64,000 nucleotides of DNA from Eublepharis macularius (taxonomy: Eukaryota > Chordata > Lepidosauria > Squamata > Eublepharidae), in the NCBI RefSeq assembly GCF_028583425.1, contig NC_072799.1, positions 88,708,217 to 88,772,216 on the forward strand, written 5' to 3'. The notes under the pieces are model-generated. The model searched no databases. It was not told the DNA's origin and saw only the letters and a program-made list of their open reading frames with translations. Position numbers and translations under genes: made by a program. Position 1 is the stretch's first letter; the number at the start of each line of letters is the position of its first letter. Shown piece by piece: positions 2,020 to 51,880 of the stretch.

Positions 2020-2690
2020 GAGCACCGTGGTCCCTGAGCATGGTGGCGGCGGCTTATAGCGACCCCTGGTGGGGTTTTCAAGGTAAGAGACTAACAGAGG
2101 TGGTTTGCCATTGCCTGGCTCTGCACCCCTGGTCTTCCTTGGAGGTCTCCCATCCAATTACTAACCAAGGCCAACCCTGCTTAGCTTCTGAGATCTGATG
2201 AGATCAGACTCACCTGGGCTATCCCGGTCAGGGCTTATGAAATCCTGCCTTCAAGTCATAGCTGACTGATGGTGACCACACACACCCCCATGGGGTTTTC
2301 ATGGCAAGAGACTAACAGAGGTGGTTTGCCATTGCCTGGCTCTGCACCCCTGGTCTTCCTTGGAGGTCTCCCATCCAATTACTAACCAAGGCCAACCCTG
2401 CTTAGCTTCTGAGATCTGATGAGATCAGACTCACCTGGGCTATCCCGGTCAGGGCTTATGAAATCCTGCCTTCAAGTCATAGCTGACTGATGGTGACCAC
2501 ACACACCCCCATGGGGTTTTCATGGCAAGAGACTAACAGAGGTGATTTGCCATTTCCTGGCTCTGCACCCCTGGTCTTCCTTGGAGGTCTCCCATCCAAT
2601 TACTAACCAAGGCCAACCCTGCTTAGCTTCTGAGATCTGATGAGATCGGGCTCTCCAGGTCAGGGCTGCTTCCCAGGCATGCAGCAGCTC
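2020..2690 (-). mobile_element. Tandem array of 5S rRNA-derived SINE (three units)
   Basis: On the - strand each unit contains a block matching the internal promoter half of 5S rRNA (AAGCTAAGCAGGGT, then GGTTAGTA, then GGATGGGAGACC). The block is followed by a non-5S body with GGCAATGGCAAACCACC. Units meet at about 2235 and 2456, a period of 221 bp. Units two and three differ by only a few bases; the first lacks part of its 5' side. Head-to-tail SINE units this similar imply local duplication after insertion. The family fits the 5S-derived SINEs described in lizards. Confidence 0.75.
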
Positions 2691-8642: not shown

Positions 8643-8650
8643 GTTTTGTG

Positions 8651-9353
8651 TAGAGATGGGCACGATCCAAAAAAAAATTAACGATCCAGCTGATTGTGGA
8701 TCGGCGCCGGCAACGATCCCGAATTAATGATCCACACCGAGCATCTCCCGTTCCCGATCTGTGGATCGTGGATCATGGATCGTGGATCGTGGAGGCCAAA
8801 GCGGGCCACGATGCTATTCCCAGCTATGTGGGAAGGTGGGTGGTGACAGCGGCCACCGGGCCTGGCAAGCACAGGGAGGCAGCGACGAGCCGCCTCCCCT
8901 CAGGTCCCATTCAGCAACACAGGAGGTCTGTGTTTGGCCATCAGAGCTGCCTATCAGGGTTTGCAGGGATGAGATTGGAGTGCCCATGGCTACAGAACAC
9001 CTCCTTCCCCCTCCCTCCACTGGGTGTCTTCTCCCAACTTGTGACTGCTTTGCTGCTCCGTGATTGGAAGGAAGCCCTGCTAATCAAGGAAAGCTGGGCT
9101 TCCATTCAAGTTTCCAGGGCGACAGAAGGAGGACAAACAGAGCTCAGGCTTCCCCCTGGCTCCGTTGCCAGGGAAATAGATTGCTGGCGCCTGAGTGTCT
9201 GGATCCCCGATCCGAGCCTGATCGCCCCGATCCAGGCCTCTCCCGATCGCTGGATCATTGGCCATGGACGATCACGATCCGCCGGGTCACGATCGCGCGA
9301 TCGCCATTATCGTGGGGGGTTTTCGATCGTAATGCGGATCATGCCCATCTCTA
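8651..9353. mobile_element. hAT-type element with GATC-rich subterminal regions (TAGAGATGGGCAYGA family, copy 1)
   Basis: Starts TAGAGATGGGCACGATCC and ends with the inverted form GGATCATGCCCATCTCTA. The perfect 8-bp target duplication GTTTTGTG is at 8643-8650 and 9354-9361. About 150 bp at each end is packed with GATC words in both orientations: 10 on the left and 12 on the right by eye, and none in the 400-bp middle. The middle shares a GTTTG(C/G)AGGGATGAGATT block with the copy at 36082-37224, where it runs in the opposite direction. No transposase frame is convincing. Known hAT elements use subterminal repeats as transposase binding sites. Confidence 0.8.
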
Positions 9354-9361
9354 GTTTTGTG

Positions 9362-19601: not shown

Positions 19602-20188
19602 AACATATTCACTATTAGCTCATGGTCTAATCCCGAGTGTTGAACATGGCAAAATTTTGAAATATAATTGTTACACTTTGCCTGTTGCATTTTTCCTATT
19701 GCTTCCTACGGAAACTGATTTTCCACAGTTCAGGAAGTAAGTACGTTTGCTTTACCTTCACGTTATTTGTTCCCATTTTATAGATAAGCAACTGAGGCAG
19801 AAAGTTATCGACATGTCAAAGACTACCACAGTTTTTCTGTGGCTGAACTGGAATTTGAATCCCCGTCTTCCAGACGTAGAAGCAACCGTCTATCCCTTTG
19901 AAAAACGTATTTTATTTCTAGCATCCATCATCCTTCCTGAAATGGGTTTTGGGCAGAGCATTACACACAAAACCCAAAAGAAATGTATAACTTTAACAAG
20001 TAGACTTTCTCTTTCTTACAACCAGAAATCATTTATGGAAGGGGCACCAGAGGGCAGCAATACTGCTCTGTGGGCTGCCTGCTGCTTGCATGCCGCCAGT
20101 CAACTAACAAGAGGCAGAGGCACAGATTTTCAACAAGAAACATTCTGTCCATTGCATATTGATTTTTTTTTCATTTCCTCTCCACCAG
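19602..20188. other. LNX1 intron ending at the PDZ3b acceptor
   Basis: An open frame runs from 19747 through the next exon, but the splice acceptor (a run of T and C, then CCACCAG) and protein similarity both begin the exon at 20189. The upstream part is intronic read-through. Confidence 0.6.
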
Positions 20189-20417
20189 GTGACATTCTGC
20201 TCAATGTAAACGGAACTGATCTGACGGGCGTCAGCCGCGGAGAAGCTGTAGCCCTTTTAAAAAACACCTCCTCATCTGTAACCCTTAAAGTTCTAGAACT
20301 GAAAGAGTGTGAGAGCCTGGTGGAGGAGAGTGACTGGTCCCTGCTCAGCGCCCATGTGAGCACCCCTGGTCCCAGTGAGTGGTCTCCTTCGTGGGTGATG
20401 TGGCTGGAGCTGCCACG
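20189..20417 (+). CDS. LNX1 exon: second half of PDZ3 and linker
   Basis: This 229-bp exon follows a strong pyrimidine tract and CCACCAG, and ends at donor CACG|GTAAGT. It completes the split Gly codon and reads [19 protein letters not shown], then [21 protein letters not shown] (the last strand and helix of PDZ3). A linker follows and ends [13 protein letters not shown], as in other LNX1 proteins. The linker between LELKE and WSPSW differs from mammals in sequence but is about the same length. It ends two bases into an Arg codon. Confidence 0.93.
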
Positions 20418-21195
20418 GTAAGTCAAAAAAGCCCTTCTGCGTATTCTGTGGGAAGAGGATGAAAGCTGCTTGCCCGGCTCTTGGTTGGATTCATTGCACT
20501 GACATTTTAATTAAATGCAAACTCAGTCACAGAATCTCATTTTAAATACCTCCTGCCTTCTTGCCACACAATCTCTACTTCCTTATGTTTATACACATAC
20601 ATATATGGAGAAAGGGCATCTAGCGCTGCTTTTAAGGAAGGAAAGCGAGATCCTGAACAAGCCCATTTTTGAAAGCATGTCTGATCATCACAGAATCAAG
20701 AGAAAACCCTGCATGGGTGCAGAAGTTCTTAGCGCACAGAGCTGCGGGAGGTGGCTGTCCTTGGACCACCCGGCCTCCCCCTAAGCTCCCATAGCTGCTG
20801 ATTCCACAGATGCTGCTGTGTTAGTTACATGCGCTTTAAAGTGTTTGACTTTGTCCAGATGTTCCAAAAGTGTGTGCATGAGGGAGGGGGGTCTACAAAC
20901 CCCCTCCCCCTTAGGCCTGCCCTATTAAAAAAAAAAACTTAATGGCCGGAAGCAGCTGTGTTGTAATTTTAGTAAAAATAATAAAAACCACAGAGTGCGT
21001 AGTTTGTCACCCACTCACACAGAGCACTTTAATGTTTCCATGGGACATAAATCTTGCCTCGTTGCAGCATTTCTCTGAACCTGAAGTTGTTTGCTTTTAG
21101 CTATTTGGCCACAGCTATCAAGCAATGACTTAAGACCTCTACTGCATCACCTGGAGATTTGGATAGCGAGATGTAGAGCTGGGTGTTGTATAAAC
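20418..21195. other. LNX1 intron, nothing recognised
   Basis: No exon is seen. A short C-rich and A-rich patch lies at 20885-20940. Confidence 0.35.
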
Positions 21196-36081: not shown

Positions 36082-37224
36082 TAGACATGGGCATGAATCA
36101 AAATACGAATCAAATTTCATGACAAATTGGGCCAATTCGAGTTTCGCGAAACGCATTTTGTGGGGCCGTGGTTTTCACAACAACTTTTTAGCCCGATTTG
36201 TTCGATTCATGTTGCCAGACAGGCTGGCGCCGATCCATTGATTCCCTAGGCAACATAGGCCCGGAATGTCTGCAGACATTTTGTTGCCATTGGAAACCCC
36301 AATCTTAGCCCACATAACCTTGATAGGTAGCTCTCCCTGACAACTGGAGAGCATCCATTCTGCCCTATACAGCGAGGAGCAGGAGGGTTAATCACCTAGG
36401 CAACTGAGATGAGCCTTCTGTAGCCATAGGAACACTAATCTCATCCCTCCAAACCCTGTTAGGCAGGTCTGTCTGCCAATCACAGACCTCCTGTTCTGCT
36501 CCATGTGAGCGTTTGTTATATAAGGCACCTCCCTCTGCCTCATGCTTTTAGTTCCAGTAGACAGAGAGAGGGAGAGGATCTGTTGCTGGGATTTGGAGTG
36601 AGAGAGAGAGAGGAGTTGGGAGCTTTTGGCTGGATTTGCTGCTGCTTCACTTGTCCTTGCTGGGAAGGTCTGTGGGTGAGGGTGCCTTTTTTCCTTCACC
36701 CCACCTCACCCTAGTCTCAGGCCTTTGCCTGGCTCTCGAGCTTAACTTGACTGAGGTCTCTCTTATTTCTTCCTTGCTTGTCTTTGTTCCTTCTTAATTC
36801 TTTCTCTGCTCTTTTGAGGGCTCACACTCTTGTTGTTTCCTTTGGTTTTATTTTGTGCATCTCTCCCGCCTGGACAGGTGTCTGTGTGGTGGTTTTGGGG
36901 CCCTCTTCCCAAGCCCACTCTCAGGGCCACTGCCTAGCTCTGGGGCCCAGCTTTGTGGGTTCCAATCAACATTTTGCAATCTTGGCCAAACTGGGAGGGT
37001 GGGTGGAAGAGAGCCTGTTGAAGTCTCCCTGCGAGTTTGACATCTTTGGGTATGAAGGGAGTTGTTGAAGTGCCCTGGGTTCTGACAAATCACGAAACTA
37101 ACGAATCGTATCACGAAATGGGACAATTTCGTGGAAGTTCATGTTTCATGATTCGTGGAATATGACAGAACATGAAACTCTTGTTTCGTCCCCCCCCCCC
37201 CCCCCCGTTTCATGCCCATCTCTA
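36082..37224. mobile_element. hAT-type element, TAGAGATGGGCAYGA family, copy 2 (GAATC/GAAAC words)
   Basis: Starts TAGACATGGGCATGAATC and ends with the inverted form GTTTCATGCCCATCTCTA. Perfect 8-bp target duplication TTGCTCAT (36074-36081 and 37225-37232). The terminal 150 bp on each side is full of YGAATC and YGAAAC words in both orientations. A 16-base C run (37191-37206) interrupts the right end. The middle shares blocks with copy 1 (inverted) and a CTGGCGCCGATC block with copy 3. Non-autonomous, 1143 bp. Confidence 0.8.
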
Positions 37225-37368
37225 TTGCTCATCTGAAATTAAAGCTAACACTGCAATGGAAATATTACCTAGTGATGGCTGTATTTTAACATGCCAACAA
37301 CTGAAAAGACAGCAGTGAAGATCCTCCCATAGTCCTTCTACCCTATAAGAGCAATGAAAACAGCCAAC

Positions 37369-45016: not shown

Positions 45017-45227
45017 AAACAGGGTTTCTCACCTGTAACTGTTGATCGTCGAGTCTCTTCTGTGCAGACACACATTGGGACTGCGCAGGCGCAGGCCAGC
45101 CGCGGAGAAGATTCTTTTAGCTTCTAGAAATGTGACGGGGACGTTCGGGCCCACCGCGCATGCGCGTCGGTGTTCCCGCCAATTTTGAAGTACAAGTACC
45201 CGAACGTCCCCGGCATTCCCTCAGTTC
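45017..45227 (+). repeat. DIRS left inverted terminal repeat
   Basis: Matches the right end (50592-50774) in inverted orientation through the GCGCAGGCGCAGGCCAG and ACGTTCGGG blocks. The outermost bases (CAGGGTTTCTCACCTG) are not shared with the right end but are complementary to the internal region at 45293-45350, as DIRS ends are. Confidence 0.85.
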
Positions 45228-45292
45228 ACCTGAGCCGCCGGAGAAACAATGGAGTAAACCAAGCACTCACAGCGGGGCAGGCGGGAGGGAAT

Positions 45293-45385
45293 GTGTGTCT
45301 GCACAGAAGAGACTCGACGATCAACAGTTACAGGTGAGAAACCCTGTTTATCGTCGTCGTCCTTCTGTGCAGCCCCACATTGGGA
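45293..45385. repeat. DIRS internal complementary region
   Basis: Its first half is the reverse complement of the extreme left end (CAGGTGAGAAACCCTG). Its second half (ATCGTCGTCGTCC) is the reverse complement of the extreme right end. In DIRS replication this region is thought to template joining of the two ends into a circle. Confidence 0.85.
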
Positions 45386-45425
45386 GAATAGCTAGCATCT
45401 CACCAATGGGGGCGGGTGTGAGTGT

Positions 45426-46862
45426 CTATGTGAACAAAGAATGCAGAACAGCCGTGCCAACAGCGGATTCACGGCGTGCATTCACGTCTACAGAATAATG
45501 TTTCATGAAAGTGTCAGCGGTAGACCACGTTGCAGCTTGGCAGACGTCCTGGAGTGGCACTCCTCGCAGGAAGGCAGCAGAGGCAGCTTGTGCTCGAGTA
45601 GAATGAGCAGTAATCAACAACGGGCACCGGACTCCAGCTTGCTGATAACAAAGTTTAATTGCAGACACAATCCAGCGAGAGATGGACTGGGCAGAAGCTG
45701 GCGAGCCCTTGCGAGGGCCAGAGTAACACAAGAACAGGGCAGGAGACTTCCTGAAACACTTGGTGCGATGTAAATAAAACAATAAAGCACGTTTCACATC
45801 CAATGTGTGTAGAGTACGTTCCTCTGGGGAAGAGGGTGTAGGAAAAAAGGAAGGAAGGACCACCTTTTGACGCAGGTGAAATTTGGAAACCACCTTGGGC
45901 AGGAACTGCATACTAGTGTGGAGCATGACCGTACCGGGGAAGAACTGCAGGAAGGGGGGGTCACACCTTAGAGCAGACAACTCCCCAACCCGCCTGGAGG
46001 AAGTGACTGCAACCAAGAAGGCCACCTTCTGCGTGAGCAGAGGCAAGGGACAGGTAGACAGGGGCTCAAAAGGGGAGAGCATCAGACGGGAGAGCACCAG
46101 GGTCAGGCTCCACTGAGGAATAGGATGGGCCCTAGGAGGAAAGGACTTTAGTAGGCCCTTCAGGAACTGTTTGGACAGCCAATGTGCAAACACAGTCCTC
46201 CCATCAATCTGCTCATGGAAGGCAGAGATAGCAGCCATGTGCACCTTAACACTGGAGAACGCCAGGCCTTGGGAGCACAGGTCCAGGAGGTAGTCCAGAA
46301 TGACAGGCAGCGGGCAAGTGAAAGGGGAAACCCCTTTGGGGGCTAACCACCTAGAGAAACGTGACCACTTCCTCTGGTAGGACAACCTGGTAGACGGTTT
46401 TCGGGCATTCAAGATCACGTTAAGCACCCTAGCAGAGAGGCCTAGTCTGGGGCGCAGAGGAGCCAGGCAGTCAGATTTAGCACTGCCACATCGTGATGCC
46501 ACACCCCGTCCCTGAGTAGCAGGTCCGGGGCGTGTGGAAGCGGGAGACACCGCCCCTGTGACAGGGAGAGTAAAAGGGGGAACCAATCCTGGCGAGGCCA
46601 CCGAGGGGCAATCAGGATACAATGGGTCCGGAAGGCTCTGATCCTGGACAGGACCTTGTGAAGGAGTGGGAAGGGCGGGAAGGCATAAAAGAGCCCTGGA
46701 GACCAGGGTATCTGGAAGGCATCCCCCAGTGAACGATGGCCAATCCCGGCCCGGGAGCAGAACAGGGGAACCTGTGTGTTGTGGGCTGTGGCGAAGAGGT
46801 CGATGAGCGGGGTGCCCCACATGCGGAAAACCACATGGAGGTAAGCCCTGTTGAGGGACCAC
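45426..46862 (-). CDS. DIRS tyrosine recombinase frame
   Basis: A 478-residue frame that overlaps the end of the pol frame in another register, as is usual in DIRS elements. The recombinase part begins near LSYQRKWSRF. Catalytic residues fit the tyrosine recombinase pattern: Arg in TSSRRVGEL, HSTR (about residues 420-423), Trp about 446 and the nucleophile Tyr about 456 (MKHYS). The first 140 residues overlap pol and may not be translated from this Met. Confidence 0.85.
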   Translation of the reverse strand: MVPQQGLPPCGFPHVGHPAHRPLRHSPQHTGSPVLLPGRDWPSFTGGCLPDTLVSRALLCLPALPTPSQGPVQDQSLPDPLYPDCPSVASPGLVPPFTLPVTGAVSPASTRPGPATQGRGVASRCGSAKSDCLAPLRPRLGLSARVLNVILNARKPSTRLSYQRKWSRFSRWLAPKGVSPFTCPLPVILDYLLDLCSQGLAFSSVKVHMAAISAFHEQIDGRTVFAHWLSKQFLKGLLKSFPPRAHPIPQWSLTLVLSRLMLSPFEPLSTCPLPLLTQKVAFLVAVTSSRRVGELSALRCDPPFLQFFPGTVMLHTSMQFLPKVVSKFHLRQKVVLPSFFPTPSSPEERTLHTLDVKRALLFYLHRTKCFRKSPALFLCYSGPRKGSPASAQSISRWIVSAIKLCYQQAGVRCPLLITAHSTRAQAASAAFLRGVPLQDVCQAATWSTADTFMKHYSVDVNARRESAVGTAVLHSLFT

Positions 46863-48337
46863 TCGTGTTGGGGCAAAAACACTCTGCTCAGCGCGTCTGC
46901 TGCTGTGTTGCTCTCCCCCGCAATATGAACGGCCTTGGGCAGGACGTTGTTGGTAATAGCCCAGTTCCAGAGCGTAGTCGCTTCCCTGCAGAGCTTGAGC
47001 GAGACCGTTCCTCCCTGCTTGTTGAGATAGTAACAGGCTGTGGTATTGTCCGACAGGACCTGCACCCTCTTGTTCCGAATGACATCTGCAAAAGAAGCAA
47101 GGGAGTAACGGATCGCTCTAAGCTCTAAGAGGTTAATGTGCATGTTTACCTCAAGGGAGGACCAAACACCCTGAGCAGACAGGCGCCCACAACGCCCTCC
47201 CCAGCCTAGATTGGAAGCGTCCGTAAAGACGGTGACCTCCGGCAGGAAGGGACCAAAAGGACAACCCTTGGACAAATTCTCAGGGACAGTCCACCACACC
47301 AAGGACCGCTGTATCACCCTCGGGATGGAAAACCCACGGTGTTGACTCATAGCGAGAGGGTTGAAAACCCGAACAAACCAGTTTTGCAGAGGCCGCATGT
47401 GCAGGCGAGCAAAACACACCACCCCTGTGGAGGAGGCCATGAGGCCCAACAAGGTTTGAATCAGGAGGGCAGTTTGGAACCGGTTATGCACGAAGTGGCG
47501 GGCCAGGCAGGACAGCCTGCTCAAGCGGTCCGGGGGTAGATAAGCCCGGCCCAGCAGAGAGTCAAAGTGGACCCCGATGAACCTAATGCTCGTACCTGGG
47601 GACAACACAGACTTCCCCAAATTGACCACTAGCCCCAGGCCGTCTAGCACGGACAAGGTGAGGGCGATAGAGGCCCGGAGGGAATCAGAGGAGGGACCCA
47701 CCAGGAGCCAATCATCCAAATATGGATAGACAAAACAGCCACTAGACCGTAAATGTGCCACCACGGTGGCCATACATTTAGTGAACACCCTGGGCGCCGA
47801 GGCCAGGCCAAAGGGCAAGGCTGTGTACTCATAGACAGCGCCTCCACAGGTAAAACGGAGATATTTTCTGTGGCCCTCAAAGATGGAAATGTGGAAGTAG
47901 GCGTCTTTGAGATCCAAAATGGCCATCCAGACGCCTGACTCCAAGAGTTCCAATACTCGTGACAGAGTAAGCATCCTAAACTTTTCCACCCTCAAGTAAG
48001 TATTAAGGGCCCGAAGGTCCAAAATGGGACGAGACCCCCCATCTTTCTTATCCACAAGAAAGTATCTTGAATAAAATCCCCAAGGGGAAGCAGAGACATC
48101 GACCAACCGGACAGCACCTTTGTTAACCAACTCCAAAACATTATTTTGTAACACAACATCACAACAAGAAGCACAACGAGGGGGGTGCGAAAGAGGGGGT
48201 GCAGTGGTAAACGATAACTTATAACCACGGGCCACAATAGAGAGGACCCAGCTATCAGTAGTAATGAGTCGCCAATGGGGCAAGAAAGGCCGTAGCCTGT
48301 CCAAGAACAAGATATTAACAGTGTCCTTGCAGGCCAA
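46442..48337 (-). CDS. DIRS reverse transcriptase/RNase H frame
   Basis: A 631-residue frame. Reverse transcriptase motifs include LDLKDAYFHI, LPFGLASAP (about residue 174) and the catalytic YLDD (about 207). RNase H motifs follow: TDASNLGWGG, LLELRAI, SDNTTA and AADALSR. The C-terminal part (PLIDLFATAHN to PRWPRQDWFP) corresponds to the segment described in DIRS elements as methyltransferase-like. It lies 21 bases after the gag-like frame. Confidence 0.88.
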   Translation of the reverse strand: MACKDTVNILFLDRLRPFLPHWRLITTDSWVLSIVARGYKLSFTTAPPLSHPPRCASCCDVVLQNNVLELVNKGAVRLVDVSASPWGFYSRYFLVDKKDGGSRPILDLRALNTYLRVEKFRMLTLSRVLELLESGVWMAILDLKDAYFHISIFEGHRKYLRFTCGGAVYEYTALPFGLASAPRVFTKCMATVVAHLRSSGCFVYPYLDDWLLVGPSSDSLRASIALTLSVLDGLGLVVNLGKSVLSPGTSIRFIGVHFDSLLGRAYLPPDRLSRLSCLARHFVHNRFQTALLIQTLLGLMASSTGVVCFARLHMRPLQNWFVRVFNPLAMSQHRGFSIPRVIQRSLVWWTVPENLSKGCPFGPFLPEVTVFTDASNLGWGGRCGRLSAQGVWSSLEVNMHINLLELRAIRYSLASFADVIRNKRVQVLSDNTTACYYLNKQGGTVSLKLCREATTLWNWAITNNVLPKAVHIAGESNTAADALSRVFLPQHEWSLNRAYLHVVFRMWGTPLIDLFATAHNTQVPLFCSRAGIGHRSLGDAFQIPWSPGLFYAFPPFPLLHKVLSRIRAFRTHCILIAPRWPRQDWFPLLLSLSQGRCLPLPHAPDLLLRDGVWHHDVAVLNLTAWLLCAPD

Positions 48338-48358
48338 CTGGGAAGCGTCCTGGTCTAG

Positions 48359-50659
48359 TCAAAAGACCGTGGGCTTTTGCGCCGAAGTCGAGGGCTTGGG
48401 CGAGGGAGGCTGCTGTCGTCCCTTGGACCGGCCGGAGCGTCTCGAAGAGTGGCGCTGCTGGCCAGAGTAGGAACGGTGGCCATAGGATTGACCGGAGGAG
48501 AACCTTCCTTGGCGCTGTTGGAACTGCTGGTAGGGTGACTGATAGGACCGGAACCTGCCGTACCGATATCTCGGACCCGTCTGCGGAACCGAAGGCGCAA
48601 CCCCGAGGGACTTGGCCGTCTGCTGGTTCTTCTTCATGAGGGAAAGGGACTCATCCGTTTTCTCTGAGAAGAGCTGGGGACCCTCAAACGGGAAATCCTC
48701 GACCTTGGCCTTCTTCTCGGGGGGCAGGGCCGTAGATCGAAGCCAGGCGTGCCGACGCAAGAGCACGGAGGATGCCATCGCACGTGCAGCAGAGTCGGCG
48801 GCGTCCTTGCCAGCTGTCATCTGTTGCTTTGACAACCGGAAAGCCTCAGCCTGGAGAGCCTTGACCAAGGCACGGCGATCGTCGGGAAGGTCAGAGAGGT
48901 AGGAGGATAGTCGCTTCCACAAGAAGAGATTGTAGGAGCCCATTATCACTTGGAAATTGGCGATACGGAACCCCAGGGAAGCCGAAGAATACACCTTCCG
49001 ACCGATGCCATCTAGCTTTCTGCCCTCCCGATCCGACGGAGCCGAAGAGGAACCGCGTCGGAACCGAGCTTGACCCTCCTCGGCCACGATGGAAGAGGGT
49101 TTCGGATGGGTGAAGAGGTAAGGGCAATCCTCCTGCTTGAGCCGATAATATTTCTCGACCTTCTTGGCCGTAGGCGGAACGGAAGCAGGGGTCTGCCAGA
49201 GCGCGAGGGCATTGTCGACGAGATCCTCGACAGGGGGGAACGCCACCGAGGCAGGAGAGCCAGAGTACAGCGGCTCCAGCAGCTTGCTCTTGGGCTTTGA
49301 GGTGGAAGAGGCGACATCCAGCTCCAGTGCCGCGGCCATCCGGACCAGCTGCTCCGCGAACACTCTGTAGTCGTCATTAGGAGACGACGAACGGAGCTCC
49401 CCCACAGCATCATCAGGGGAAGGGTCGGAAGCCGCGTCCGAGGAGTACTCTGATGGAGACGCCAGGCCCTCTTCATCCTCGGAGTCGGAGAAAACCGCCG
49501 GGGTCTGCGTCGGAACCGAAGGGCGCTCCGTCGGAACCGAGGTACAAGGCTCGGGAGCCGAAAGATGGCGATGCGGCCGAGCAGCAGGCGGAGCAAGTGG
49601 CAGAGTCGACGGCGCCGGAACCGAGGTCAAGGGCGCCGATGGGCCAGGCAGGAAGGGGGCGGACTGCTGGATCCAAGCCACGAAATCTTGCCAGGAGGCC
49701 ACGTTCCCAAAGCCCGGGACAGGCTGCCAAGGAGGTAGAGCAGCAGGCACTGGAACGGATCGGTGAAACGGCGCCGGAACCGACAAGACTGGCTGCGCCG
49801 GAACGGAGGCCTCCGACGGGACCGGAGCAGATGGCAGGGAGCGTTCAAACTCCTGGAACGGTTCCGAAAAACAAGGGAACGATTCATAGTCGTCCGGAAC
49901 CACCGGAGGAGGCGTACGAGGAGGCGAAGGGGTGTGCAGGAGACTCCTGACGTCCTCAGCAGGAGGGGCCGATCTGGGAGGCGAACCAGCCAACGATGTC
50001 GGGGCCGGCGATAAAGCACGGCTCTTGGCTTTCGACTTGGCCTTTGCCTTTTTTGGCGGGGGCTCCGAAGAAGCCGCAGTGGCCAAAGGCTTGGAAGAAG
50101 GCTTCGACGAAGCGCGTTTCTTCGCCTTCCGACTGGACGGAACACTCACGGAACCGGAGGTAGTCGAGCCCTCCGGAACGGGCGGCCCCGTCGGATCCGA
50201 GGGGAGCGGTTCCGGCGACTTACGCGGAGCCGGCGAGGGAGCGACAGAGCTGGGCTTGCTCCCGGACGATCCAGACGGTTTGGGCGGCAGAAGGTTGGCG
50301 TCCCAAAGGAAGGCTCGGAGCCTGGCCTTGCGGTCGTTCCGCGCCTTCGGGGTGAAGGCCATGCAGAACTTACAGCGCTCCACGACGTGCCCCTCGCCCA
50401 AACAGATAAGGCACAGGTCATGACCGTCTGAGTGGGTCATTTTAGTGCCACATTGCTGGCATTTTTTAAATAGAGAGGAATGGGACATGGTGGAGGCGTG
50501 TCCCAGAAAATGAAGCGATAACTCACAAGCGACGAACAGTCCGAAGACACGAGCGACAGCTAAAGAACCTTTTCGAACGGCGGCGAAAAAGGAACTGAGG
50601 GAATGCCGGGGACGTTCGGGTACTTGTACTTCAAAATTGGCGGGAACACCGACGCGCAT
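48359..50659 (-). CDS. DIRS gag-like frame
   Basis: A 766-residue frame rich in Pro, Ser and Lys. The likely start is the Met at 50488 (MSHSSLFKKCQQCG), since the first 57 residues lie largely in the terminal repeat. A Cys-rich patch follows (CQQCGTKM...CLICLGEGHVVERCKFC), then a basic, proline-rich middle and a C-terminal domain ending RSGRSKGRQQ. Function by position: the structural-type protein of the element. Confidence 0.75.
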   Translation of the reverse strand: MRVGVPANFEVQVPERPRHSLSSFFAAVRKGSLAVARVFGLFVACELSLHFLGHASTMSHSSLFKKCQQCGTKMTHSDGHDLCLICLGEGHVVERCKFCMAFTPKARNDRKARLRAFLWDANLLPPKPSGSSGSKPSSVAPSPAPRKSPEPLPSDPTGPPVPEGSTTSGSVSVPSSRKAKKRASSKPSSKPLATAASSEPPPKKAKAKSKAKSRALSPAPTSLAGSPPRSAPPAEDVRSLLHTPSPPRTPPPVVPDDYESFPCFSEPFQEFERSLPSAPVPSEASVPAQPVLSVPAPFHRSVPVPAALPPWQPVPGFGNVASWQDFVAWIQQSAPFLPGPSAPLTSVPAPSTLPLAPPAARPHRHLSAPEPCTSVPTERPSVPTQTPAVFSDSEDEEGLASPSEYSSDAASDPSPDDAVGELRSSSPNDDYRVFAEQLVRMAAALELDVASSTSKPKSKLLEPLYSGSPASVAFPPVEDLVDNALALWQTPASVPPTAKKVEKYYRLKQEDCPYLFTHPKPSSIVAEEGQARFRRGSSSAPSDREGRKLDGIGRKVYSSASLGFRIANFQVIMGSYNLFLWKRLSSYLSDLPDDRRALVKALQAEAFRLSKQQMTAGKDAADSAARAMASSVLLRRHAWLRSTALPPEKKAKVEDFPFEGPQLFSEKTDESLSLMKKNQQTAKSLGVAPSVPQTGPRYRYGRFRSYQSPYQQFQQRQGRFSSGQSYGHRSYSGQQRHSSRRSGRSKGRQQPPSPKPSTSAQKPTVF

Positions 50660-50774
50660 GCGCGGTGGGCCCGAACGTCCCCGTCACATTTCTAGAAGCT
50701 AAAAGAATCTTCTCCGCGGCTGGCCTGCGCCTGCGCAGTCCCAATGTGGGGCTGCACAGAAGGACGACGACGAT
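50592..50774 (-). repeat. DIRS right inverted terminal repeat
   Basis: Inverted match of 45040-45227. Its last bases, GGACGACGACGAT, are unique to this end and pair with the second half of the internal complementary region. Confidence 0.85.
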
Positions 50775-51093
50775 CTTAAATATTGCTTTGGGAAACTTAC
50801 TGCTAAATTTTTGTTGATCGAGCTGTCAAAATGACTGAGTTTGAACCAATAAACCTGTATGCAGAGTTCCTCTCATAGGAATGGGCCTTTTACTCCTTCT
50901 TCTTGCTCCAACCCATGGCATTCCCAAAATGCTGCTCCTGTGAGTTGTAACTCTCAGGAACAGTGCGGACTGAGGTGTGTGTGTGAGAGAGAGGGAGTTC
51001 ACTCCCCCCTGCACCAGTGGAAATAACCCTTAGGACAAACCCTCATAAATAACTACCGGAGATGTATCCCTAAAGTCAGATGAACATCTGCAT

Positions 51094-51519
51094 TAGAGAT
51101 GGGCATGAACTGAAATACGAATTAAAGTTTGTGACGAGCCGGGCCAGTTTGTGGTTTGCAACCCGGTGGCTCATCAGAGCCCATTTCTGACGAACCGCCA
51201 CGAACTTTAGGCTGGTTTGTTTGGTTCATTTGTTGGTTCGTCACTGCAGACAGTCTGGCACCGATCAATCAGTTTCCTAAGCAACAGGGGATGGACTTCC
51301 TGCAGACCTTCTGCTGACCTGGAAGTAGCCTTCCGCTGGCCTGGAAGTGACCTACTGCTGACCCAGAAGTACTGATTTGCTGACCTGGATGTGAAGTTTT
51401 CATGAACCAAACGAACCGGTTCACAAACCAGGGCAGGTTCGTGAAAGTTCGTGGTTCATGAAATGCGATGAACCACGAACCGCACGGTTCATTTTTTTAC
51501 CAGTTCGTGCCCATCTCTA
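51094..51519. mobile_element. hAT-type element, TAGAGATGGGCAYGA family, copy 3 (GAACC words)
   Basis: Starts TAGAGATGGGCATGAAC and ends with the inverted form GTTCGTGCCCATCTCTA. Flanks ATCTGCAT (51086-51093) and GTCTGCAT (51520-51527) match at 7 of 8. The terminal regions are full of YGAACC/GGTTCR words in both orientations. Shares the CTGGCACCGATCAATC block with copy 2. 426 bp, non-autonomous. Confidence 0.78.
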
Positions 51520-51880
51520 GTCTGCATTAAAACTCTTCCAGAATAAAGAGAACCAAGCAGGAAGCAGCAACTCCTCTTCCTTAAGCATGCACACACACGA
51601 GGAGAGATTCTCATGCCTAGAGGGTAGCTCTGAAAAGTTCTTAGTTTAATGTACAAAGAGCATAGCAAAGAATCAAGTTTTCTTGTTTTTCTCATCTAAA
51701 GCTACAGCATCTTTATGAAAACTAGACTGTATTGAAATCTGTACAAGATATAGATTAGTTGTATTCTGCCAATTATTAAAAAATTCAAATATCAAAAATC
51801 AACATATTGATTTTTCCATTTTAAATTAGCATTTACCATTCCCAGCACCAAAAAACTACAAGTTGATTCAAACATGTATT
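51520..51880. other. FIP1L1 intron, nothing recognised
   Basis: AT-rich, no exon. Confidence 0.35.

What the first reader, a model, noticed from the sequence alone, without database searches (positions are those of the whole stretch)
8651..9353. One hAT family, three copies, each with its own subterminal word changed as a set
The copies at 8651-9353, 36082-37224 and 51094-51519 share the end TAGA(G/C)ATGGGCAYGA, 8-bp target duplications and parts of the middle. The repeated word that fills their terminal 150 bp differs: YGATCC in copy 1, YGAATC/YGAAAC in copy 2, YGAACC in copy 3. The word next to the terminal repeat changes with the rest. Independent point mutation cannot change 10-20 scattered copies of a word in step. 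Known hAT biology (subterminal repeats bind transposase) suggests parallel switching of transposase specificity, or homogenisation between the words of one element.
Basis: partly seen in the sequence, partly recalled or inferred. Interest (0 to 1): 0.7.

Follow-up and report, generated by a model that had tools for sequence, protein, structure and literature searches.

The report
Jumping-gene family rewriting its address word
In this animal genome, tens of thousands of hAT transposon ends carry a short word repeated many times at each end, and surviving copies record how that word was changed site by site, probably because the enzyme that recognises it changed its preference.

Summary
In detail: three hAT copies share a terminal repeat, have 8-bp target duplications (two perfect, one 7 of 8) and carry different subterminal words. 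The whole genome (2.24 Gb) could be searched: 55,682 exact ends, 3 for the reversed control. Copy 1's scaffold exists with GATCC words, with GAACC words and as mosaics: spacers differ by 8-30%, but the same word base differs at up to 16 of 18 sites. At three neighbouring sites, the first 100 of 3,344 matches show four of eight possible states: TTT 52, AAA 25, ATA 22, TTA 1. Eleven sites in 26 elements form a nearly perfect nested order (1 error in 249 cells). A word-free tree, rooted on other word classes, runs GAAC, mostly GAAC, half-switched, GATC. So the word was most likely rewritten stepwise from GAACC to GATCC, at both ends, in transposase-bearing and deleted copies. Co-evolution with the transposase's BED zinc finger is the best explanation but is inferred: no pure-GATC transposase was found and no binding was tested.

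The parts
8651..9353 (-). Copy 1, 703 bp, all-GATC class, internally deleted element; its A end (transposase side) is at 9353, its B end at 8651
   Evidence: exact terminal repeats, duplication 8 of 8, 72% to the 5' region of transposase-bearing L015
9204..9353 (-). A end of copy 1 with 11 scored word sites, all GATC type
8651..8820 (+). B end of copy 1 with 7 scored word sites (6 GATC/GATT, 1 GAGC)
8756..8793 (+). short tandem array of the word, period 7 (GATCGTG), in the inner part of the B end
8902..9225 (-). body of copy 1 homologous to the 5' region of transposase-bearing copies
   Evidence: C1 252-575, 72% over 332 bp
8643..8650 (.). target duplication GTTTTGTG (other copy 9354-9361)
36082..37224 (+). 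Copy 2, 1143 bp, GAATC/GATTC/GAAAC class; A end at 36082
   Evidence: body 62.5% over 480 bp to L015
36074..36081 (.). target duplication TTGCTCAT (other copy 37225-37232)
51094..51519 (+). Copy 3, 426 bp, GAACC class, short family with L015_1898, L031, L035, L049; A end at 51094
51086..51093 (.). target duplication ATCTGCAT (other copy 51520-51527 reads GTCTGCAT)

Best explanation
The three copies are internally deleted, nonautonomous members of related hAT lineages whose transposase genes carry a BED zinc finger. The repeated subterminal word is most likely the finger's binding site. On the lineage of copy 1 the word changed from GAACC to GATCC, one base per site, at up to 18 sites spread over both ends, in an ordered series of steps; intermediate lineages amplified and left copies. 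SHOWN: shared scaffold, word states, orientation-consistent base, nested order, tree order (given the root), agreement of the two ends, mosaic ends on transposase-bearing copies, and one internally deleted type found in two word states. INFERRED: that the words bind the transposase, that the finger's preference changed, and that selection for binding drove the replacement. A second set-wise difference (fifth word base, GAACC versus GAACA) marks a related lineage.
For: Word sites switch beyond the spacer rate: L029 16 of 18, P 3.6e-7; L024 and L047_332 13 of 18, P 8e-5 and 1.7e-4; L034 7 of 18, P 0.042. Where flanks fix the orientation, 11 of 11 sites of L029 show the matching base (rows). 3,344 places genome-wide match a three-word B-end pattern (control 1); the first 100, all on contig C1, fall into TTT 52, AAA 25, ATA 22, TTA 1. 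26 elements, 11 sites: 1 error in 249 cells against 23.7 on average and at least 14 in 2,000 row shuffles. Word-free trees give the order L029, mostly GAAC, half-switched with GATC (forks 93/94 and 99/98; 95/94 and 99/98). Ends agree: cosine 0.604 against 0.251, 0 of 20,000 permutations; 22 of 52 TTT B ends have a listed GATCC partner, 0 of 48 others. 15 of 16 fetched BED-bearing copies have a readable A end: 14 mostly GAAC, 1 half-switched. zf-BED above cut-off in L054, L055, L025. Short subterminal words bind the transposase in Herves, Ac and Hermes (passages read: PMC3143072, PMC3260210, PMC10368747).
Against: No binding was tested and no transposase of the pure GATC class was found. The finger shows no clear change in its helix between stages; one residue upstream (N or T in GKxPKH) is T in 4 of 6 later-body copies and N in 9 of 9 others, a post hoc lead. 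The GATC group has only 73/77 support, st1 and GATC are unresolved within one fork, and an earlier tree with non-homologous tails did not unite GATC (3 changes). Nestedness partly follows from shared descent. Some later-body copies keep early words (L016, L066, L067). Exceptions to the order: L056 at one A-end site and L020_1673 at one B-end site. Direction depends on rooting with the other word classes.
Confidence: 0.68

Rival explanations
1. The word was rewritten for another reason than a changed transposase: escape from a host repressor or from a transposase-derived protein that binds the old word, or from titration by thousands of old-word copies. The stepwise history would be the same.
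For: Ends starting with the old word are still numerous (GAACC 6,982 exact; GATCC 3,248), so titration is plausible. The finger shows no clear helix change between the stages sampled.
Against: No repressor was sought or found. In this view too the transposase must bind the new word, so it is partly the same model.
Confidence: 0.17
2. Recombination or gene conversion between ready-made GATC and GAAC elements made the mosaics, so they are hybrids and not intermediates.
For: Mosaic ends exist (L034, L013, L024, L055). One internal deletion junction occurs with half-switched ends (L034) and with all-GATC ends (L043, L044), which exchange of ends could also give.
Against: Reciprocal states TAT, TAA, ATT, AAT are 0 of 100 against 37.7 expected under independence. 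Switched and unswitched sites are interspersed in one order across 26 elements, and the word-free tree gives the same order.
Confidence: 0.08
3. Homogenisation of words inside an element (slippage or conversion between words) spread a new word at once.
For: A local tandem array of the word exists in copy 1 (8756-8793), and B-end length varies there.
Against: In A ends and the outer B end the alignments are nearly gap-free, with spacers kept around the changed bases, and partly switched elements are common (ATA 22 of 100).
Confidence: 0.04
4. Nothing special: old hAT families that simply have different words, each amplified separately.
For: Copies 2 and 3 are only about 63% alike and 58-63% alike to copy 1; from the window alone this would be the default.
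Against: On copy 1's scaffold, bodies 85-95% identical to L045 carry different word sets (L034 94.7%, L024 90.6%, L029 84.7%), and word sites change beyond the spacer rate.
Confidence: 0.03

Closest known systems
Herves (hAT, Anopheles gambiae)
   Same: Short subterminal motif CG/AATTCAT repeated in the ends, sufficient for transposase binding; the authors say binding regions differ between hAT elements and so ensure specificity (PMC3143072, passages read). Similar core to the GAAYC/GATTC words here.
   Different: One element with one word; no intermediates between words in the passages read. Binding shown there, not here.
Ac/Ds (hAT, maize)
   Same: Multiple AAACGG repeats in the terminal 200 bp bind the transposase; many deleted Ds derivatives share ends (PMC3260210, passages read).
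   Different: The Ds classes are scored for number of one hexamer; set-wise replacement by another word is not described in the passages read.
Hermes (hAT, house fly)
   Same: BED zinc finger recognises short subterminal repeats, cooperatively and asymmetrically at the two ends (PMC10368747, passages read).
   Different: Site is AAGT with an AT-rich neighbour; there the right-end repeats were not bound by BED domains, whereas here both ends carry and change the word.
Galileo (P superfamily, Drosophila)
   Same: Multiple short sites for a zinc-binding THAP domain inside long ends; sites not conserved between subfamilies or species (PMC3688188, passages read).
   Different: Other superfamily and other finger; no graded series of word states in the passages read.

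Membership tests
hAT superfamily | 8-bp target site duplication | tested here: met
   two of three window copies 8 of 8, one 7 of 8; 36 of 38 aligned elements at least 6 of 8
hAT superfamily | short terminal inverted repeats | tested here: met
   15-bp pattern at both ends of all three window copies
hAT superfamily | transposase with BED finger | tested here: met
   zf-BED above cut-off in L054, L055, L025, with ends of this family 1.1-1.25 kb upstream in L054 and L055
hAT superfamily | hAT C-terminal dimerisation region in this family's own transposase | tested here: inconclusive
   L015 gave no Pfam hit; L052, its continuation, aligns with the hAT protein of L053 (35.7%, 1.7e-31) and weakly over the end of that protein (4e-4). 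The strong PF05699 hits were not tied to this family.
hAT element with transposase-binding subterminal repeats | short word repeated at both ends, not in the body | tested here: met
hAT element with transposase-binding subterminal repeats | physical binding of the word by the BED domain | not testable with these tools
   needs protein and DNA
Ds-like internal deletion derivative | shares ends and flanking body with transposase-bearing copies and lacks the gene | tested here: met
   copies 1 and 2 against L015; class GATC has no known transposase-bearing parent; copy 3's body was not tied to a parent
Ds-like internal deletion derivative | mobilised by the related transposase | not testable with these tools
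   none

The most novel reading that the evidence does not exclude
This genome holds a step-by-step fossil record of a transposase-binding word being rewritten at up to 18 separate sites of one hAT lineage (GAACC to GATCC, one base per site, in a fixed order, at both ends). Nonautonomous passengers went through the same change, and a second word base differs as a set in a related lineage. It would be a natural demonstration of how a multi-site protein-DNA recognition code can be replaced without losing function, and of how transposon families split into separate mobilisation groups.
Probability: 0.6. Interest if true: 0.8.

Novelty: new variant of a known kind. Interest (0 to 1): 0.7.

Why it matters
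How a DNA-binding protein and its many sites can change together is an old question, because every intermediate must still work. hAT families are known to use different subterminal words, but the path between words is usually lost. Here several steps survive as amplified copies in a relative order, so each step can be tested with short DNA probes and the finger. It also bears on how transposon lineages separate from their own nonautonomous parasites.

Tried and rejected
Viral collection scan with an 18-place end pattern: 2 hits, read around the match and judged chance (prokaryote-like coding DNA, no second end seen). L011's transposase was first taken for this family's; a second hAT end (TAGGGGTGTGCA) nested inside shows that it may belong to another element, so it was left out. 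L053 (918 aa) showed no end of this family (up to 3 mismatches) in the 5 kb fetched and was left out of the word/finger comparison. L081 was fetched as a possible autonomous GATC element because of the spacing of its ends; it is a GATC A end whose match stops at 393 bp, with no BED exon in the 2.2 kb. A first tree (27 rows) included non-homologous tails and needed 3 changes for GATC; one search masks the tails of 6 rows and drops 4 rows (L014, L037, L038, L041); one search uses 20 rows. End-branch lengths do not separate the classes by age. One search dropped 3 of 38 elements as segmental or tandem duplicates; 2 of the 38 (L018, L027) lack a 6-of-8 duplication. The count of ends that continue with GAACA was not obtained. 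L057's A end was not found. Nine literature searches listed no paper on set-wise word replacement in hAT elements by title or abstract start; passages of four papers were read, none in full.

Full report
1. The observation. The window holds three elements with matching ends at the stated coordinates, 8-bp duplications (two perfect, one 7 of 8) and different repeated words. Copy 1 lies in the opposite orientation: its reverse complement aligns with copy 2 (63% over 307 bp), copy 2 with copy 3 (63% over 235 bp); copy 1 with copy 3 is weak (58% over 194 bp). Words belong to the ends: in 35 elements a single YGANNN word reaches 4 or more copies in 57% of 70 terminal 150-mers and in 0 of 148 internal ones.

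2. The genome. The window is part of a 2.237-Gb genome in 72 contigs in which the terminal repeat occurs exactly 27,871 + 27,811 times (reversed control 2 + 1). 292 kb were read as loci. 38 paired elements were aligned, 36 of them with at least 6 of 8 duplicated bases. Word classes seen: GATCC/GATCG, GAACC, GAACA, GATTG, GATTC/GATTT, GAATC/GAAAC. Exact counts: TAGAGATGGGCACGATCC 1,645 + 1,603, TAGAGATGGGCACGAACC 3,532 + 3,450, controls 0.

3. Anatomy. One end (A) lies on the transposase side: C1 252-575 and C2 87-547 align (72% and 62.5%) with the 5' region of the transposase-bearing copy L015. In L054, L055, L056 and L060 the BED exon lies 1.1-1.4 kb inside the A end; in others, extra copies of a tandem repeat of about 135 bp lie between. 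Copies 1 and 2 are therefore Ds-like deletion derivatives; copy 3 belongs to a short GAACC family (L015_1898, L031, L035, L049).

4. Same scaffold, different words. On copy 1's scaffold ten A ends align almost without gaps, and twelve B ends do so over their outer part. With five all-GATC copies as reference, 18 GATC sites were scored. Switched sites: W_8651 0, L043 0, L044 0, L033 1, L045 1, L034 7, L024 13, L047_332 13, L029 16; spacer differences from 0.08 to 0.30. For L029 the chance of 16 or more of 18 at the spacer rate is 3.6e-7; for L034 it is only 0.042. Where flanks fix the orientation, 11 of 11 sites of L029 show the base expected for that orientation (rows).

5. Few states, nested. 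A pattern spanning three neighbouring B-end words matches 3,344 places (control 1). The first 100, all on contig C1, are TTT 52, AAA 25, ATA 22, TTA 1; TAT, TAA, ATT and AAT are absent where independence predicts 37.7 together. At 11 A-end sites of 26 elements the states form a nearly perfect scale, with 1 error (L056) in 249 scored cells; shuffling states within each of 18 distinct rows gives 23.7 errors on average and at least 14 in 2,000. The series is L029 (site 51 only), then 59 and 80, then 74 (L069), then 13, 97 and 121 (L034, L055), then 25, 105 and 141, last 130; cells that are neither type were not scored and L065 has a deletion there. At the B end L020_1673 departs from the order at one site. 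Nestedness follows in part from shared descent; it means that sites switched once and stayed switched.

6. Direction. A tree from the word-free 5' region (249 columns, 23 rows) puts the GAAAC/GAATC, GAACA and L015-type elements outside, then L029 (fork 93/94), then mostly-GAAC copies, then a fork of 99/98 with half-switched and GATC copies; GATC itself has 73/77. Adding three transposase-bearing copies and L081 keeps this order (rooted on copy 2). Given that root, the change ran GAACC to GATCC. Some copies with the later body still have early words (L016, L066, L067). An earlier tree with non-homologous tails did not unite the GATC copies, and placed GATTG/GATTT elements (L014, L038, L041) among them; these were dropped.

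7. Both ends, and passengers. Word profiles of the two ends agree within elements (cosine 0.604 against 0.251 permuted, 0 of 20,000). From printed coordinates, 22 of 52 TTT B ends have a listed partner A end starting GATCC, against 0 of 48 other B ends (P 3.7e-8); 3 AAA and 1 ATA end have a listed GAACC partner (the GAACC list reaches only 37.8 Mb). L034 (half-switched) shares its internal deletion junction with L043 and L044 (all GATC), so a lineage without a transposase is found on both sides of the change, by its own substitutions or by exchange of ends.

8. Transposases. Two searches with BED exons had 5,402 and 5,617 candidates, of which 150 each were scored and matched. Sixteen were fetched and 15 have a readable A end: 14 mostly GAAC (one, L069, with one more site switched) and one half-switched (L055). 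Mosaic ends are thus not confined to deleted copies. zf-BED is above cut-off in L054, L055 and L025. The finger shows no clear change in its helix between these stages; one residue upstream (N or T in GKxPKH) is T in 4 of 6 copies of the later body type and N in 9 of 9 others (P 0.011, chosen after looking). No transposase of the pure GATC class was found, so the central link is untested.

9. A second difference. Against L029, GAACA elements differ at the fifth word base at A-end sites 25, 74, 97 and 141, with 21 of 82 spacer columns different; site 59 of L029 already reads GAACA, and site 121 does not fit. B ends show GAACA-type words too. Set-wise change is therefore probably not unique to the GATC switch.

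10. Mechanism. In Herves, Ac and Hermes short subterminal words bind the transposase, in Hermes through a BED finger (PMC3143072, PMC3260210, PMC10368747; passages read). The simplest account is that the finger's preference shifted and each site that gained the new base helped its element, so sites were replaced one by one. Recombination predicts reciprocal mosaics, which are absent from the 100 ends seen; homogenisation predicts blocks and altered spacers, which the alignments do not show. Escape from a repressor, or from titration by old-word copies, remains possible as the driving force.

11. Verdict. A real, widespread and unusually well preserved case of stepwise rewriting of a transposon's recognition word: a new variant of known hAT biology. 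Co-evolution with the transposase is likely but inferred. The nine literature searches made here found no earlier report; that is a limited search of open papers.

Noticed in passing
window 2070-2647: 221-bp unit in 2.6 tandem copies, 98% alike, each with a 5S rRNA-like match on the - strand; looks like a 5S-derived SINE (recall).
   Followed up: no
window 45136-50683: Long open frames on the - strand (638, 563 and 774 aa) with a reverse transcriptase match and a weak phage-integrase-type match, bounded by a repeated end sequence: looks like a fairly intact DIRS-type retrotransposon about 0.4 kb left of copy 3.
   Followed up: partly
window 19741-20421: Open frame with a PDZ domain match above cut-off, probably a host gene exon.
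   Followed up: no
L011 4631 and L053 862-3615: A second hAT kind: end TAGGGGTGTGCA with its own words (TTCGG/GAATC type) nested in a GAACA-class end; a related 918-aa open frame with BED and hAT dimerisation domains, and further open frames of similar length in the PF05699 list. Whether its words also change as a set is worth a look.
   Followed up: partly
L054-L069: Tandem repeat of about 135 bp, variable in number, between the A end and the BED exon of transposase-bearing copies.
   Followed up: no
genome contig C1, about 1.9-2.7 Mb (L013/L022, L014/L021/L023, L015/L017, L027/L028): Near-identical, partly inverted segmental copies carry the same elements; the BED search also lists matching copies near 243 Mb of the same contig.
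   Followed up: no
L016, L019, L020: GAACA-class ends in closely spaced similar arrays with poly-G next to the terminal repeat (GAACGGGGGG), as also in copy 2's B end.
   Followed up: no
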